Source: Endomicrobium sp.
Lineage (GTDB): Bacteria > Elusimicrobiota > Endomicrobiia > Endomicrobiales > Endomicrobiaceae
Direction: 5' to 3'
NCBI GenBank assembly: GCA_031271205.1
Contig: JAISWG010000005.1
Location: 1-37,880 of the forward strand
Length of the DNA: 37,880 bases
Made by a program: the position numbers and the translations under genes. Shown here in pieces: positions 1 to 25,350 of this stretch. Below the pieces are notes generated by a model. That model worked only from the letters and a program-made list of their open reading frames with translations. It did not search any database and had not been told where the DNA came from. The first letter of the stretch is position 1. Each line of letters starts with the position of its first letter.

Positions 1-1145
1 ATAGATTTATTGCTTAATGCTCGTTCATATGTGATTAAATGCTTAAATCCATTTTCTTCAAATTTTTCTGCAATAAATTGGTCTGTCGGCAATTGAATAT
101 TTTTAACCGTTCTGTTTCCAACTATATAAATTGCTTTGCCGCCTTTGCGTATGTTTCTTGTAACTTTCTTTATTGAGCTTCCTAAATCGTTATAAAACGC
201 TGAAACTTCTAACGCTCTTTTCTTATTCAACGCTGTCAATTTTGGATACAAAGTCAGCAACAACGCCTGCTTTTATATTTTCCTTTAATTTTTGTCCACC
301 CATTAACATGCTGTCTATTTTGCGAGCATAATCTATACCTAACCATTCGTTAGAAAGAGCAGAAAACTGACCATAAGCGACAGTTGTGTGACTATCGCCA
401 TAAGGTGGGCTTGTCAACACAACATCAAAATGCTTATCTGCAGAATTGAATTTGTCATATTTTATTTCAACTTTTGTAATGTCTTCCAATTTAGGTAAAT
501 AGAAGTTTTTATAGTAAGAAAATGCGTTGTCAAACTTCTTAAAATATACGCCTATTACATCTGGATTAAAATTTAATAATTCTTCGGATTTCATACGAAA
601 TAACTTAAATTCATTGTTGCGGGTATAAGAGCATTCCCTAACAGTTTCTGAGAATGGAACTAGGAAAAAGTTGCGTATATTTTCGTTTTTAATCTTATCT
701 ATAAAATATTTCATAACGGTAAGGTTCTTGATAACTTTTTTTGAAAACCAGAAATCAATGTTTGTTATCTGCGGATGTGACAACACTTCAATATTTTGTT
801 CCTTCTTTATAAAATCATATAAACTATTTCTAAATGCTTTACGGGTTTCTAAAAGTTTGTCAGGCGATATTTTTGTAAATTTAACTTTTGATAGCAACAC
901 AGCAAGAGGATTTATATCGCAGCCATACATCTCCTTTATACCGCATTCCAGCCCGCTTGAAAAAGATGAACCAGAACCGCACAATATGGGTCAAGAAGTC
1001 TTCCTTTAGATATATTCAATTCTTTAAGTATATCTATACCTATTTGCGGCAACATTGTAGCAGGATATTTATGAAGATTAGGATAAGAAGAACTATAAGA
1101 TTGCCCTGTATAATCGTATTTTGCGTTTCTGACAACTTTATACAT
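1..1145 (-). pseudogene. DNA methyltransferase (probably N4-cytosine), frameshifted, runs off window start
   Basis: This is the modification gene of a type II restriction-modification pair, broken by at least two frameshifts. The first piece starts with ATG at 1145 and reaches the SAM-binding motif DPYC. At about 977-986 an apparent TG dinucleotide duplication shifts the frame, and the motif continues as CGSGSS in the next frame (984 down to 223). That second piece contains the catalytic motif TSPPYGDS followed by TVAYGQFS. A second shift near 223-235 moves the reading to a third frame, which stays open to base 1 (residues such as IRKGGKAIYIVGNRTVKNI). TSPPY is typical of amino-methyltransferases, and the MvaI/BcnI enzymes are partnered by N4-cytosine methyltransferases. 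The start overlaps the stop of the upstream nuclease gene in TAATG, implying former translational coupling. Target specificity cannot be read from the sequence. Confidence 0.85.
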
Positions 1146-1823
1146 TATAAATCCTTTATACTATTAAAAAGTAGCGGCAATTTGTCTTCATAAGTTCTAA
1201 ATCCTGTTCCATGATTTCGCGCCATTGTTCCTTTATCGTGTAATCTTAAATCAACCAATATATTTTCAGCGCGGAATTGGTCTAATAATAATGCCGGTGA
1301 AGTTCCTTGCATCAATTGCGCTCTATAATAATGAAAATACTCTACACCGTTTCTTTCTTCTGTAAAGGTAGAAATAAAAAGCAGAGCAGATATTTTCTGA
1401 ATAAATCTATCAGTCTGCCTGAAGTCGCCAAACAGCGATAATATCGCCTGAAACATGTCTGACTGATATTTCTGTTTTCCCAACATCAAGAAAAAGTCCC
1501 GCGCTGTTTGGTTTTAAAGTCATTGTGTAATATAAACCCTTTCTTCCGTTTTTATCAATATTCCCATATTTTTTAACAGCCTCTAAAGGTGGCATTTTCC
1601 AAACTTTGTTGTTAAATGTAAATAAAGTAATTAACCCATTAACATTTGTTCTATGCGCTTTTAATTCTGCTCCTTCAATATCTGGGTTAGTGCTGTTGTT
1701 CTCAGAAATTCCTAAAAGACTTTCTAGCGTATACCCTATACCAGTAGCACCGGCGCGTTTCGTACGAACAAAACCTATATCTCTAATATGTTTAAATTTA
1801 TCTTTGAACTCAGAAATTTTCAT
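1145..1823 (-). pseudogene. MvaI/BcnI-family restriction endonuclease, frameshifted
   Basis: Two overlapping minus-strand frames together make one nuclease. The N-terminal piece (1823 down to 1410) has the metal-binding stretch with acidic residues and ELKAHR, resembling the E...ExK core of PD-(D/E)XK enzymes. The C-terminal piece (in frame to the stop at 1145) has VDLRLHDKGTMARNHGTGFR, a stretch I associate with the MvaI/BcnI family. The shift lies near 1412-1425, after IIAVW in one frame and before DRFIQK in the other. Members cut CC(W/S)GG-type sites and act as monomers. With its methyltransferase also broken, the whole system is inferred to be inactive. The family call is from remembered motifs, not from a search. 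Confidence 0.75.
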
Positions 1824-13842: not shown

Positions 13843-14077
13843 TTTTATAAGGTCTGCTTTGGGAAACTTTATTTTTTAATTTTTAGTTTTAAATGATGAC
13901 AGATATTTATGGATATATTTATTTAAGATGACTGAAAGTAATTCAAAATAATATTACAAGACTAAATTAATACTAACTTTTGAAGATTAAAATAAATCTT
14001 ATGGAATTTATTTTAAATGTTTCTTTGATAAGTATAGCGTGTATTGTTGCGATTTTTATATCAAAATACCAATAATT

Positions 14078-14150
14078 GTGGTTTATAGTGTAAAGGTTAA
14101 TATTCGCGTTCTCTCGCCCAACACAGTTCTGTAACAAGTCTCAGTTGGAA
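14078..14150 (+). pseudogene. Possible fossil tRNA
   Basis: The stretch GTGGTTTATAGTGTAAAGGT followed by TAATATTCGCG resembles the acceptor and D arm of tRNAs with an 'ATAGTGTAA-GGTTA' D loop (Glu or Gln types). The following bases (TTCTCTCGCCCAACACAG) are GC-richer than the surroundings but do not fold into a proper anticodon arm, and no clean T arm follows. Confidence 0.22.
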
Positions 14151-16322
14151 AACGTATGTCATCTCAGCGTATGAAACAGTGTTTTAATGTTTGTTTTTTG
14201 AAAGTTTGTTTTAATTGATGTTTGTAATATAGACATAAATTATCGTATTTTTTATCTTTAAATAAATAATCATAACTTATTTTTTATTAAGAGACTGTGT
14301 GTAATTCATAGTTTTTTTGGAATAAATCTATGTTTTTGATTTACAGATATAGTTTTTTTATTAAAACTGATATCTTAAACTTATAAATTTTTAAACACTT
14401 CAGACAATCTAAAACCATTGTATATAGAAAACCCACATTATTACTTAGAAATCTGACAGTTTTTTTAGCTTCTTGCCTTAAACACAAAAAAAATAAAAAA
14501 GTGTTTGTCTTAGCGTGTGAAATTAGAGAGACTTGATAAGAAACGTTATTAGATGGAATGAAAAATATTTTTGAGTGGAACGAAAGAAGATGTAAAAATC
14601 TAATTGATGAATTGGATTTGTTAGAATTTTAAGTGTTTGTAAAAAAGAAAGAGTTAAATTAACAAAAATATTGGTAAAAAAACAAGAAATAATTTTTCTT
14701 CTATTGAATACAAAAAGTAAAATATCTCTGCTACTATAAAAATGTTAAAAAGTGTTTCATATGATCAATTTTTTCAAAAGGTTTCTGGGGGGTGTAGACT
14801 TAATTTTTAGCGGAATATTGTCATTAGAAGAATAAACAGAAGTATTAAATGTTTGTATTACAAATTTAGATGAAAGTAAAGTTAATATTTTCAATATATT
14901 TTTGAAATTATTAGTAATATATAAATGAGCAAGTTCCAAATGTTTTACAAATAATATGATGGCCTACTAAGGCCAGGACAATATATAAAATAATTTTTTG
15001 GAAAAAATTCATGGAACTTATAAACTTTCCAATAAAAACCTGAGTTTATATTATTTTTTAATGTCTGTTCATTCTTACTGGAATTATTTTATTGATATTT
15101 TTTGTTACGAAGAATTAATCATAAAATTATTTTCTGTTTATAATTATATATATTCGTATTTTCATCTTTTGTATCTTCTATTATAGTTTTTATACAGTTT
15201 ATCTGGGTGTTGATATCAAATAAAGTTGAATATTTTGTAACAAAATCAAATAAGATTGTGTTAAATCTGTTGATGGATTGGAAAAACTAGAATCTATTAA
15301 CTAGAATAATATCTAGTTGTAATATGCAGTTTTAAATTTTCGAAAAACAGTAATGACACCAATAACTAGAGATGTACAATAAGATATTTTTTTCTGTAAG
15401 ATATGCTATATCTTAGGGGTATAAAAGATTCAATAGTAATGAATACTGACTTAATAAAAATTCTCTTTTTTGTTATTTGATTTAAAATCGGATGTAATGA
15501 ATCTTTAAAATTCATAGTTTTATAAATGATGTTGATAAAATAGATTTAGAAAAAATTGAAGGAATTACTGAAGCCCATATTATTTGATGGTATGAAAAGG
15601 AAATGCATGTTAATTGTGTAGATAAAAACTTAAAGAGAGTGGATTTTTAGTGCTTTTTATCATTTATAAAGAATCGGAGAAGGTAAATGAAAAATGTAAA
15701 AAATTATGAAGATTCCTCGTGTGTTGAAATTATGGGTGATTTTTCATCTATTGTAAGAAAGAGTATATTGGCGATGACAGGAATAATATTTTTTGAATAA
15801 ATATTCCTTACAACAATGATTACTTATTTTTTTCTTAGGTAGTCGGGTGTTTAATATTTATTATTTTTCTAACGTCACCAAAAAAGTTTATGATTATGCG
15901 TATCTATTTTATGTATATTTTTGATTTAGTTTAAATTTAATTACATTGATGGTGTTTTATATTGAAATAGATTTTAATAGATGGCGTTGTAAAAAAAAAG
16001 ATATGGATGGCATGTTTGTGAGTGCGTGATAGTTATATCGTATATTTTTTTCTATTTTTTCACTTTTATAGTTCTCTCAAATCTATATGAATCTACGCCT
16101 ATTTTTTGTCAACTATGACCTTTATTCTTTTTAGTAAATAAAGAATAGTGTTTTTAATTATTGTTTTGTTATTTTCTGAAATTTTTGAATATATTTGCTC
16201 TTTTAGATGCGACTGTATTGCTAAGAACAGAAAAGACTGGTTGGTTAATTGTTCTGATGAACAGCTTATAGTTTTGTGGCAAAAAATATAGTGTTTGAAA
16301 TTAGCTTATATTGAAAACTTTT

Positions 16323-16331
16323 TGATATAAT
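16323..16331 (+). promoter_or_regulatory. Extended -10 just upstream of the secreted-protein gene
   Basis: TG-A-TATAAT at 16323-16331. The start codon at 16343 is only 12 bases further, so transcription from here would give an almost leaderless mRNA. The AGGT at 16334-16337 could instead be the ribosome binding site of a transcript begun further upstream. Confidence 0.35.
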
Positions 16332-16342
16332 GCAGGTTTGTT

Positions 16343-21233: not shown

Positions 21234-22399
21234 AAAAACAATTACTCCCCGAGACATCGTGTACAGTGTGTAAAAGACCCAAAGTGTTTTTTAGACCGAC
21301 TTGGGTAGAAATTGACAAAAGCGATTTTCACTTCAATTTGAAAAAGATCAAAGAATATCTTGCAAAAGACACAAAAATAATGGCTGTTGTTAAAGCCAAT
21401 GCTTATGGTCATGGTGGAGTAGCTATTGTAAAAGAGGCTCAAGTTGCAGGTTTACAATGGTTTGCAGTTTCTTCTATCGAGGAAGGAATACAGTTAAGGG
21501 AAGCTGGTATTAAGGTAAATATTTTAATTTTAGGTAATATTTTCCCTTTTGAGAATTTTCAAGTTGTCATATCTCATTTTCTAACACCTACTATTTCCAC
21601 AATAACTGGACTTATAGCATTAGCAGAACTAGCTGTAAAAATTAACAAGAGAATAAATTTTCATTTGCAGGTGGATACCGGAATGGGAAGGATAGGAGCA
21701 TTGCCTGAAGCAGCATATCTTATTTTGCAAAAGATAGCACAGATACCTGAAGTTTGTATGACTGGCATGTACACGCATTTTGCTGTTGCGGACATAGATC
21801 CTGTTTTTACAAAAATGCAAATAGATGTTTTTACAAAAATAGTTAGATTTTCCAAAATAAATTTAGGCTTAAGATTTATTGCACATTCAGCAAACTCTGC
21901 GGCGTTATTTAAATATAAAAAATCTCACTTTGATATGGTGCGTCCAGGACTCAGCCTTTATGGACTTAATCCTTTTAAACACTCTGATAGGTTTTTGAAG
22001 CTTAAGCCTGTTTTATCTTGGAAAACAAAGATAACTTTTATGAAAAAAGTTTCTGCAGGTTTTTGTGTAAGCTATGGAAGGACTTTTATTACAAGTAAAA
22101 CTTCAATTATTGCTACTTTGCCGGTAGGTTATGCCGATGGACTCAATAGACTTCTTTCAAATAGAGGAGATGTTTTAGTTGGTGGCAAGCGCTGTCCTAT
22201 TATAGGGAGGATTACAATGGATATGACCATGATAGATGTTAGCGACGTAAAAGGTGTGTCTCTTGGTGATGAAGTGGTTATTATAGGGACACAAGGGTCG
22301 GAGCAGATAAAAATAGATGAGCCTGCAAAGCTTCAAGACACGATAAATTATGAAGTTACATGTGCCATATCTTCGCGTGTTCCAAGAATTATAGTTTAA
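21230..22399 (+). CDS. alr: Alanine racemase
   Basis: Makes D-alanine for peptidoglycan. 389 residues, with the PLP lysine in MAVVKANAYGHG (K55) and the second catalytic residue Y282 in CVSYGRTF of the beta domain. GMGRIG lies at 151-156. VGYADGLNRLLSNRG and RITMDMTMIDVS are further family signatures. Compared with most Alr proteins there is an N-terminal extension of about 22 residues containing C-x-x-C (CTVCKRP). The start overlaps dnaB by four bases, so it is translationally coupled. Its presence supports a retained peptidoglycan pathway. Confidence 0.94.
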   Translation: MKKQLLPETSCTVCKRPKVFFRPTWVEIDKSDFHFNLKKIKEYLAKDTKIMAVVKANAYGHGGVAIVKEAQVAGLQWFAVSSIEEGIQLREAGIKVNILILGNIFPFENFQVVISHFLTPTISTITGLIALAELAVKINKRINFHLQVDTGMGRIGALPEAAYLILQKIAQIPEVCMTGMYTHFAVADIDPVFTKMQIDVFTKIVRFSKINLGLRFIAHSANSAALFKYKKSHFDMVRPGLSLYGLNPFKHSDRFLKLKPVLSWKTKITFMKKVSAGFCVSYGRTFITSKTSIIATLPVGYADGLNRLLSNRGDVLVGGKRCPIIGRITMDMTMIDVSDVKGVSLGDEVVIIGTQGSEQIKIDEPAKLQDTINYEVTCAISSRVPRIIV

Positions 22400-22410
22400 A
22401 TTATATTATT

Positions 22411-23241
22411 ATGAAAATTGATGTAAAAAAAATAATAAAACTTGAGTGGCTTGTGGAGAAGATAAGCTATACTTCTTTCAGTGTTGTTTTTTTGTCTCTA
22501 GAAGGTTTAGGTAAAACCTTTGAAATGACGAGAGAAGCAATAAGAAATATATTCAAAGGGGTTATTTCGTCAAAAGATACCGTTACTCAAATGGTAGAAG
22601 TCGGGTGGAACTCTTTGCCAATAATATTGCTTACATCTTTCTTTATGGGAATGGTTTTGGCTCTTCAAGTAGGCTCAGCAACAAGCAATATGTTTAATGA
22701 GCCTGTATATGTAGGAATTATAACAGGTTTTGCCATGGTTATAGAATTAGGACCTGTTCTTACTGCTGTAATTGTAACAGGAAGAGTTGGAGCTGCAATT
22801 ACTGCAGAAATCGGAACAATGAAAGTTACAGAACAATTGGATGCCTTGTATACGCTTGGAACAGATCCTATAAAGTATCTGGTTGTACCGAGATTTTTAG
22901 CGTGTTTTTTTATGCTTCCTATACTTACCGTTATTTCAAATATAGTAGGGGTATATGGCGGTATGGTTTTTTCAACTAACACTTGGATGCTTTCTTCAAA
23001 TGCATTTTGGGATGAAGTTTTGGATTTTATGACTATTCGTACTTTTCTGCATGGATTTATAAAATCTTTTGTCTTTGCGTTAATTGTTGTAATAGTTGCT
23101 TGTCATAAGGGATTAAATGCTGAAAACGGAGCCGAAGGAGTCGGCAAGGCAACTACGAGTTCTGTTATGACATCAATGGTTTTTATTCTGATAGCAGATT
23201 ACTTTTTAACAGCGTTTCTTATAACTTTGAGAATAAAATGA
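22411..23241 (+). CDS. mlaE: MlaE-family ABC transporter permease
   Basis: 276 residues. Inner-membrane permease of an MCE-type lipid transporter (Mla), which moves phospholipids between inner and outer membranes. Hydrophobic segments include PIILLTSFFMGMVLALQVGS and the conserved ELGPVLTAVIVTGRVGAAIT, followed by AEIGTMKVTEQLDALYTLGT, the hallmark loop of this family. ATG 22411, 11 bases after alr, is chosen. An upstream in-frame ATG at 22360 would overlap alr by 40 bases and add an unrelated leader. mlaF follows after 19 bases. Confidence 0.93.
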   Translation: MKIDVKKIIKLEWLVEKISYTSFSVVFLSLEGLGKTFEMTREAIRNIFKGVISSKDTVTQMVEVGWNSLPIILLTSFFMGMVLALQVGSATSNMFNEPVYVGIITGFAMVIELGPVLTAVIVTGRVGAAITAEIGTMKVTEQLDALYTLGTDPIKYLVVPRFLACFFMLPILTVISNIVGVYGGMVFSTNTWMLSSNAFWDEVLDFMTIRTFLHGFIKSFVFALIVVIVACHKGLNAENGAEGVGKATTSSVMTSMVFILIADYFLTAFLITLRIK

Positions 23242-23260
23242 TTTGTATAATAAATAAAAA

Positions 23261-24037
23261 ATGATAAAAGTTGATAATATTCATAAACGGTTTGGCGTTA
23301 AAACGGTGCTGAACGGGGTAAGTTTTGAAGTTTGTTCCGGAGAGACATTGGTTATTATAGGCTCTTCTGGGGCTGGCAAAAGTATTTTATTGAAAAATAT
23401 TATAGGTCTTATAAAGCCTGATTCTGGTTTTATTGATGTTGATGGTGTAAACATAACAAACTGCTCTTTAGAGGAGCTGTATGAAACTCGCAAGAAAATA
23501 GGATATGTATTTCAAGAATCAGCTCTTTTTGATTCTTTGAATGTTTTTGAAAATGTAGCTTTCGGTTTAAAAAATCTTACGTCTCTTAGCAAAAACGAAA
23601 TAAAACAAAGAACAAAACAATGTTTTGCTATGGTAGGTCTTGAAAATGTTGAACATTTAAATCCTTCTAGACTTTCGGGTGGAATGAAGAAGAGGGTTGG
23701 CCTTGCAAGGGCTATAGCTTATCAGCCTGAATATATTTTATATGATGAACCCACTACCGGTCTTGATCCTATAATGTCTGACATTATAAACAACCTTATA
23801 CTAAATTTAAAAAAATATTTGCATGTTACGTCTATAGTCGTAACACATGATATGAATTCAGCATATAAAATAGCTGATAGAATAATGATGCTTTGTGGTG
23901 GCAATATTATTTTTAACGGTACATCGGATGAAGTTCGCAATACTAAAAATAAATACGTAAAACAATTTATTGAAGGTTCAAGTATGGGGTCAATGCATAG
24001 TGACAGGATTTTTGAAATGGGGAAAAGAAGAATATGA
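23261..24037 (+). CDS. mlaF: MlaF-family ABC transporter ATP-binding protein
   Basis: 258 residues. Walker A GSSGAGKS (34-41), Q-loop YVFQESALFD, signature LSGGMKKR (138-145), Walker B YILYDEPTTGLDP (158-170) and the H-loop histidine in VVTHDM. FQESALFDSLNVFENVAF is typical of the MlaF subgroup. It powers MlaE. It overlaps the next gene by four bases (ATGA), so mlaF and mlaD are coupled. Confidence 0.95.
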   Translation: MIKVDNIHKRFGVKTVLNGVSFEVCSGETLVIIGSSGAGKSILLKNIIGLIKPDSGFIDVDGVNITNCSLEELYETRKKIGYVFQESALFDSLNVFENVAFGLKNLTSLSKNEIKQRTKQCFAMVGLENVEHLNPSRLSGGMKKRVGLARAIAYQPEYILYDEPTTGLDPIMSDIINNLILNLKKYLHVTSIVVTHDMNSAYKIADRIMMLCGGNIIFNGTSDEVRNTKNKYVKQFIEGSSMGSMHSDRIFEMGKRRI

Positions 24038-25350
24038 GCAAGCAATTAAGGTTAGGAATTTTTGTATTTTTTGGACTTGCCGCTGTGGCTGTTTCTATAA
24101 TAGCTACAGGAAGTTTTTCCTTAAAAAAGACCTATAATGTTTATGCTAAATTTGATAATATTTCTGGAGTTACCGAAAAAGCTAAAGTTAAAATAGCAGG
24201 TGTTGACATAGGTGTTTTAAGAAGCATTTCTTTGGAAAATTCTCAGGCTAAATTAAAATTGTCAATAGACAAAAATGTAAAGTTGTATAGAAATGGTGTA
24301 GCTAGAATTGTTTCTATGGGTGTTATAGGGACAAAATATATTGAGATTTCACCGGGTGATTTAAGCGCAGAGGAATTGAAAGATGATGACTATATCTTTA
24401 CCGAGCAGTCTTCAAGTTTTGAGGCTATACTTAAGAATATTTCAACAAGGGTTGATAAAGCAATGCATAACAAACAATATGGTGATATGATGGAAAACCT
24501 TGCTGATTCTATATACTTTTTGAAAGATGTTATGGGAAATCTTGCTTCTGAAAACGAAAATGTATCTAAAATAATAAGTAATTTAAATAAGTTTTCGTAT
24601 GATGTGGCGGTTATTTCTTCTGAAAACAGAAAAGATTTAAGAGCAATAGTGTTGTCAATTAGGGATCTTTCAGAAAAATTAGATGCTTTGATAGAACGCA
24701 TAAGCAATGGAAACGGTATGGCTTCTGTGCTTATAAACGATGAGCAAATGAGTAAAAATTTAAAAGAAACAGTAGTATCTGCTAAGGAAACTGTAAGAGA
24801 GTTAAAGAATACTATATGTAAAACCAATAAACTTCAGTTAAGCTGGAACTATACTGGAAGGTACGATGTGAAAGATAAGAAATTTAGAAATGATGTCGGC
24901 ATAAGTATAATGTCAAGCTACAATAAATTCTATTATGTCGGAATTTCAAATGTAGCAGACTATAATTCGACAAGTGATTATGAAAAAGGCAGTATGAATA
25001 AACTTGACGCGTTGCTCGGTTTTAGGTATGGAAAATGTGAAATATATGGTGGGGTCATAAAAGGAAAATGTGGGGTTGGTTTCGGATACTCTTTCTTTGA
25101 ACCTACTTGGGCTGAATTCAGAAGATTTAAAGTTTATTTAAATATGTACGATTTTGTCAGAGAAAAGCATGGTTCTGTTATTGATACTGGAATGAGAGTT
25201 GGTCTTACACAATGGCTTTATGCTGGAATTGATCTTGAAGATATTTTTTCTAAAACAGCTGTTACGCCTTATATAAAACTTGAGATTAATGATAAAGATT
25301 TAATGGCTTTGCTTGGAATTATAAACATTACAACAATTGCAGCAAAATAG
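24034..25350 (+). CDS. mlaD: MlaD-family (MCE) protein with a beta-rich C-terminal region
   Basis: 438 residues. One N-terminal transmembrane helix (LRLGIFVFFGLAAVAVSIIA). A single MCE domain spans about 33-115, with AKFDNISGVTEKAKVKIAGV and MGVIGTKYIEISPGD. A long helical, probably coiled-coil stretch runs from about 120 to 270. The last ~165 residues are unlike E. coli MlaD, which is only about 180 residues. They alternate aromatic and polar residues in short strands (SSYNKFYYVGISNVADY, LLGFRYGKCEIYGGVIKG, MRVGLTQWLYAGIDLED), like the end of an outer-membrane beta-barrel. The protein might therefore reach from the inner to the outer membrane. The barrel reading is inference from residue pattern. 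Confidence 0.9.
   Translation: MSKQLRLGIFVFFGLAAVAVSIIATGSFSLKKTYNVYAKFDNISGVTEKAKVKIAGVDIGVLRSISLENSQAKLKLSIDKNVKLYRNGVARIVSMGVIGTKYIEISPGDLSAEELKDDDYIFTEQSSSFEAILKNISTRVDKAMHNKQYGDMMENLADSIYFLKDVMGNLASENENVSKIISNLNKFSYDVAVISSENRKDLRAIVLSIRDLSEKLDALIERISNGNGMASVLINDEQMSKNLKETVVSAKETVRELKNTICKTNKLQLSWNYTGRYDVKDKKFRNDVGISIMSSYNKFYYVGISNVADYNSTSDYEKGSMNKLDALLGFRYGKCEIYGGVIKGKCGVGFGYSFFEPTWAEFRRFKVYLNMYDFVREKHGSVIDTGMRVGLTQWLYAGIDLEDIFSKTAVTPYIKLEINDKDLMALLGIINITTIAAK

What the first reader, a model, noticed from the sequence alone, without database searches (positions are those of the whole stretch)
24034..25350. MCE protein that may carry its own outer-membrane barrel-like end
The Mla operon is complete at the inner membrane, but its MlaD is more than twice the usual size. 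It has a long coiled coil and a C-terminal ~165 residues that alternate aromatic and polar residues like barrel strands. One polypeptide could anchor in the inner membrane, bridge the periplasm and contact or insert into the outer membrane, removing the need for MlaC and MlaA. No mlaB, mlaC or mlaA is seen here.
Basis: partly seen in the sequence, partly recalled or inferred. Interest (0 to 1): 0.6.

Follow-up and report, generated by a model that had tools for sequence, protein, structure and literature searches.

The report
Transenvelope MlaD with outer-membrane barrel
A termite-gut Endomicrobium carries the three-gene version of the Mla lipid-transport system, in which one long protein (MlaD) probably runs from the inner membrane to a small barrel in the outer membrane; this layout was described in Veillonella in 2023 and turns out to be standard across this phylum, so it is a real but known kind of system.

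Summary
The 438-residue MlaD (24034-25350) has a TM helix, an MCE domain, about 130 helical residues and a C-terminal domain. AlphaFold2 predicts that domain as ten strands (pLDDT 88.5, pTM 0.81). Its strands alternate a face almost free of charge with a polar face carrying most invariant residues, and the nearest solved folds are mostly outer-membrane barrels. mlaE and mlaF precede it; no mlaA or mlaC is found here or in almost all of the phylum. This is the "minimal transenvelope MlaEFD" architecture described for Veillonella parvula (Grasekamp 2023: 419 residues, ten-strand barrel), so it is a new member of a known kind. The same long MlaD sits before radA across Elusimicrobiota. A side result: in one Elusimicrobiota family the alr-radA slot holds mlaA-mlaC-RND instead, and mlaE and mlaD are gone from most of those genomes. 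This natural swap fits the idea that the barrel-ended MlaD does the job of MlaC and MlaA. Several reduced Endomicrobium genomes have lost or are losing the operon. Unproven here: membrane insertion, hexamer assembly, lipid transport and its direction.

The parts
22360..23241 (+). mlaE, inner-membrane permease (a second possible ATG at 22411)
   Evidence: PF02405 E 1e-76; TIGR00056 over its cut-off
23261..24037 (+). mlaF, ABC ATPase
   Evidence: PF00005 E 1.5e-34; NF008809 MlaF E 3.7e-58 but under that model's cut-off; position between mlaE and mlaD
24034..25350 (+). mlaD, 438 aa, long form
   Evidence: ORF; PF02470; full-length relatives at 30-84% identity
24040..24108 (+). N-terminal transmembrane helix, residues 3-25
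   Evidence: AlphaFold2 helix and hydrophobic sequence
24130..24402 (+). MCE domain, residues 33-123 (Pfam match 33-108)
   Evidence: fold matches to solved MlaD structures
24418..24816 (+). helical stretch, residues 129-261, presumed periplasmic tube
   Evidence: AlphaFold2 helices, low confidence; tube inferred from PMC10665443
24835..25290 (+). ten-strand beta-barrel, residues 268-419
   Evidence: AlphaFold2 pLDDT 88.5, pTM 0.81 for residues 258-438; alternation test; fold search
25291..25344 (+). conserved C-terminal tail, residues 420-437 (DxDLAxLLG motif), predicted helix of low confidence
   Evidence: D420, D422 and G428 invariant or nearly so in 53 relatives; pLDDT about 52-73

Best explanation
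This is a three-component MlaEFD phospholipid transporter with a transenvelope MlaD. Six copies of MlaD would sit with their N-terminal helices around MlaE in the inner membrane, forming an MCE ring. The roughly 130 helical residues would form a tube across the periplasm, and the C-terminal ten-strand barrels would anchor the tube in the outer membrane. MlaF hydrolyses ATP and MlaE moves lipid between the tube and the inner membrane, most likely returning misplaced phospholipid from the outer membrane. No shuttle (MlaC) or OM lipoprotein (MlaA) is then needed. Shown here: gene order, domain layout, a confident barrel fold with membrane-barrel chemistry, and near-absence of MlaA/MlaC from the phylum. 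Inferred from homologues and PMC10665443: hexamer, tube, OM insertion, lipid cargo and direction.
For: Operon mlaE-mlaF-mlaD. Ten-strand barrel, pLDDT 88.5 and pTM 0.81. Strand alternation beyond all 10000 shuffles. Hydrophobic face 1.6% charged against 36% on the other; nine of ten most conserved strand positions, including R276, D287 and E402, on the polar face. Fold matches mainly to OM barrels. MlaA in 15 of 341, MlaC in 4 of 120, MlaD in 303 of 341 phylum genomes. BamA-type Omp85 in 38 of 41 relatives, and TamB in the host itself. In one family mlaA-mlaC-RND occupies the mlaEFD slot. Same architecture with OM fractionation of the barrel in V. parvula (PMC10665443).
Against: No coordinates were available to measure which face points outward; two soluble lipocalin-like barrels are also among the fold matches. 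The helical tube is poorly predicted. No hexamer was modelled. The host assembly is about half complete, and no Omp85 match was found in it. Some phylum members have MlaD without a barrel and no MlaA found, so a barrel is not strictly required for doing without MlaA.
Confidence: 0.85

Rival explanations
1. The C-terminal domain is a soluble, lipocalin- or FABP-like barrel that binds lipid in a hydrophobic interior at the end of the periplasmic tube. It contacts but does not enter the outer membrane.
For: Soluble ten-strand-type barrels (CpeS, Ycf58) are among the fold matches at TM 0.37-0.43. A soluble barrel also alternates hydrophobic and polar residues. Mean conservation of the two faces is equal.
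Against: Charged and glycine residues on the polar face are invariant (R276, D287, G289, G329, G340, G347, E402), which is odd for a solvent-exposed face. Best TM-score is to a designed transmembrane ten-strand barrel. The Veillonella barrel fractionates with the outer membrane (PMC10665443).
Confidence: 0.1
2. The operon is a relic on its way out in a reducing endosymbiont genome, and the protein no longer works.
For: mlaE, mlaF and mlaD are all broken in L072/G126 and L084/G129. 14 of 42 genus genomes have no MlaD match.
Against: In this window all three frames are intact and full length. MlaD is 84% identical over its full length to its closest relative and keeps nearly all conserved positions.
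Confidence: 0.05

Closest known systems
Veillonella parvula MlaEFD with transenvelope MlaD (Grasekamp et al. 2023, PMC10665443)
   Same: mlaEFD only; long MlaD (419 against 438 aa) with TM helix, one MCE domain, long helical stretch and a ten-strand C-terminal barrel; no MlaA or MlaC.
   Different: Other phylum (Elusimicrobiota), other neighbours (alr and radA here; tolC and tamB homologues downstream in V. parvula); a conserved DxDLAxLLG tail follows the barrel here, not compared with the Veillonella sequence.
E. coli MlaFEDB-MlaC-MlaA
   Same: MlaE, MlaF and the MCE domain of MlaD.
   Different: E. coli MlaD has 183 aa and no barrel; it depends on MlaC, MlaA and MlaB, none of which is seen here.
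Mycobacterial Mce1 (PDB 8fed)
   Same: Single-MCE proteins with long helices forming a tube; best sequence and fold match over the MCE domain and helices.
   Different: Heterohexamer; each chain gives one strand to a shared small barrel (PMC10665443) instead of a ten-strand barrel per chain.
E. coli PqiB and LetB (YebT)
   Same: MCE proteins that span or nearly span the periplasm.
   Different: Several MCE domains in series and no C-terminal OM barrel (own knowledge); this protein has one MCE domain.

Membership tests
MlaD / MCE family | MCE domain match over the curated cut-off | tested here: met
   PF02470 62.7 bits against a cut-off of 25.1, residues 33-108
Transenvelope MlaEFD (Veillonella type) | mlaE, mlaF and mlaD together in one operon | tested here: met
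   22360-25350, same strand, 4-base overlap of mlaF and mlaD
Transenvelope MlaEFD (Veillonella type) | C-terminal ten-strand barrel on MlaD | tested here: met
   AlphaFold2, ten strands, pLDDT 88.5, pTM 0.81
Transenvelope MlaEFD (Veillonella type) | hydrophobic, lipid-facing outer surface of the barrel | tested here: inconclusive
   Strong two-face alternation and charge segregation and OM-barrel fold matches, but coordinates could not be inspected
Transenvelope MlaEFD (Veillonella type) | no MlaA or MlaC in the genome | tested here: inconclusive
   None in the host assembly, which is 53.5% complete; none in near-complete genomes of the same genus in those samples
Transenvelope MlaEFD (Veillonella type) | hexamer with a periplasm-spanning tube; barrel found in the OM | not testable with these tools
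   Multimer prediction and fractionation not available here
E. coli type six-component Mla | MlaA and MlaC present | tested here: not met
   MlaA and MlaC not found; MlaB: no room for it between mlaD and radA, not searched elsewhere in the genome

The most novel reading that the evidence does not exclude
Within Elusimicrobiota the transenvelope MlaEFD operon has been replaced in its own chromosomal slot (between alr and radA) by an mlaA - mlaC - MMPL/RND module. The two would then be interchangeable solutions: one an ATP-driven bridge with its own OM barrel, the other a shuttle pathway presumably driven by an RND pump. This natural swap would make the claim 'a barrel-ended MlaD does the work of MlaC and MlaA' directly testable.
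Probability: 0.45. Interest if true: 0.5.

Novelty: new member of a known kind. Interest (0 to 1): 0.33.

Why it matters
It adds a whole phylum (Elusimicrobiota), with a diverse set of more than 50 aligned barrels, to an architecture examined experimentally so far, as far as I found, in one diderm Firmicute. It points to invariant residues and a tail motif to mutate. It also supplies a syntenic swap (mlaEFD against mlaA-mlaC-RND) that bears on whether the two designs do the same job.

Tried and rejected
Pfam and NCBIfam on the C-terminal domain alone: no family. Profile search of the barrel against PDB sequences: nothing beyond chance. BFVD fold search: only weak matches, several to phage-encoded OM-type barrels, nothing informative. 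Mean column entropy of the two strand faces does not differ (2.00 vs 1.90, p 0.96); only the most conserved positions and the charge content separate them. Idea that mla loss in the genus follows loss of LPS: not supported, 9 of 14 MlaD-less genomes keep an intact LpxC match. The supplement of PMC10665443, which may list Elusimicrobia, was not readable here; the main text does not name the phylum.

Full report
What is there. The window lies in an Endomicrobium of the termite gut (closest named records are Endomicrobium and Endomicrobiellum genomes); its assembly is 609,713 bases and 53.5% complete. The gene order is dnaB - alr - mlaE - mlaF - mlaD - radA, all on the + strand, with mlaF and mlaD overlapping by 4 bases and radA 8 bases after mlaD. 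MlaE and MlaD are over the Pfam cut-offs; MlaF is an ABC ATPase. So the operon is mlaEFD only, with no room for mlaB or mlaC.

MlaD. The protein has an N-terminal hydrophobic helix (residues 3-25), the MCE domain (33-123), helices from 129 to 261 and a C-terminal domain. The full-length AlphaFold2 model is weak in the helices (pLDDT 34-56) but shows ten strands at 268-278, 283-293, 298-305, 323-332, 335-342, 345-353, 365-372, 382-390, 395-402 and 409-419. Folding the domain alone with 52 relatives gives the same ten strands with mean pLDDT 88.5 and pTM 0.81.

Is it a membrane barrel? One face has 1.6% charged residues, the other 36%; of the ten strand positions with entropy below 0.7 bits, nine, including R276, D287 and E402, are on the polar face. 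That fits a polar, conserved interior and a lipid-facing exterior. Mean conservation of the two faces is the same. Foldseek against the PDB lists mostly outer-membrane barrels (OmpA, OprF, NspA, porins) and a designed ten-strand transmembrane barrel with TM 0.50/0.60; two soluble lipocalin-like barrels also appear. Coordinates could not be inspected, so the orientation of the faces is inferred.

How common it is. In 120 genomes drawn across the phylum, 113 have an MlaD; by my count from the table about 99 of them have an open frame of 390 residues or more, and about ten genomes of three families have forms of roughly 260-320 residues; those inspected have no barrel. Over 341 genomes 303 have MlaD and 15 MlaA; MlaC is in 4 of 120. 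The window's MlaD aligns over its full length with relatives down to 30% identity, and the barrel down to about 20%. A tail after the last strand, DxDLAxLLGxxxxA, is among the most conserved parts (D420, D422, G428); its role is unknown. The order mlaE-mlaF-mlaD-radA recurs across the phylum.

The slot swap. G089, of another family, has MlaA and MlaC but neither MlaD nor MlaE. Its dnaB-alr-radA region carries mlaA - mlaC - an MMPL/RND transporter exactly where the window carries mlaEFD. The same order is complete in G271 and G273 of the same family, and alr-mlaA-mlaC-RND is seen in G270. G272 has only mlaA between alr and radA, with a distinct MlaE elsewhere. Of 15 MlaA-bearing genomes 8 lack MlaD, against 30 of 326 without MlaA (Fisher p 4e-5; not corrected for kinship, and 14 of the 30 are small Endomicrobium genomes). 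All 8 also lack MlaE. The other MlaA-bearing genomes keep an MlaE and MlaD, and in G268 the RND module lies on another contig while mlaD-radA stays. The MlaC and RND proteins resemble HpnM and HpnN of hopanoid transport but score well below those models' cut-offs. Replacement in place is shown by synteny; equal function is inferred.

Loss in endosymbionts. Fourteen of 42 same-genus genomes have no MlaD match. In L072/G126 and L084/G129 mlaE, mlaF and mlaD are broken together, with radA also broken in L072. Nine of the fourteen keep LpxC, so the operon can go while that step of LPS synthesis remains. A study of these genomes reports loss of LPS and OM genes but does not mention Mla (PMC11257099).

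Comparison with the known. Grasekamp et al. 2023 (PMC10665443) described the same architecture in V. parvula: MlaEFD only, a 419-residue MlaD with TM helix, MCE domain, about 150 helical residues and a ten-strand barrel; the isolated barrel fractionated with the outer membrane. They found long MlaD in 85% of homologues, a barrel in about 10% of sequences, and proposed MlaEFD as ancestral. They report barrel MlaD widely in diderm Terrabacteria and, in Gracilicutes, mainly in some Proteobacteria and close phyla, and absent from the PVC and FCB groups. The present protein is a new member of that kind in a phylum their main text does not name; whether their supplement lists Elusimicrobia could not be read.

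Verdict. Interest is modest, raised somewhat by the phylum-wide conservation and the slot swap.

Noticed in passing
L080:2458-7724 (G089); also L121, L122, L099: In one Elusimicrobiota family mlaA - mlaC - MMPL/RND sits between alr and radA, the slot that holds mlaE-mlaF-mlaD in the window and, where checked, in other members of the phylum.
   Followed up: partly
L072, L083 (G126), L084 (G129): mlaE, mlaF and mlaD decay together in small Endomicrobium genomes; radA is also broken in L072. 14 of 42 genus genomes have no MlaD match, and 9 of these keep LpxC.
   Followed up: partly
window 25291-25344: The tail after the last barrel strand (DxDLAxLLG) is among the most conserved parts of the domain across the phylum, with no known role.
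   Followed up: partly
L005, L013, L019 (families f14, f13, f11): MlaD of about 280-300 residues without a barrel, next to mlaF and radA, in genomes where no MlaA was found.
   Followed up: no
L038 / L070: A 99%-complete relative (G001, Endomicrobiellum agilis) has mlaF, mlaD and radA, but no mlaE or alr was found in the 5 kb upstream, and its MlaD frame holds one stop near the C-terminus.
   Followed up: no
G000:C4:9738-10307 (L078): A weak LptD-family match (22.6 bits, just over the cut-off of 22.4) in a 632-residue frame, although PMC11257099 reports LptD absent from all Endomicrobiaceae.
   Followed up: no
window 223-1823: A fragment matching MvaI/BcnI restriction endonucleases (1410-1823) next to a methyltransferase-like fragment (223-984, no Pfam match), perhaps a broken restriction-modification system.
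   Followed up: no
window 13843-16342: About 2.5 kb between a tRNA gene and the next long ORF with no ORF over 62 residues, perhaps eroded genes.
   Followed up: no
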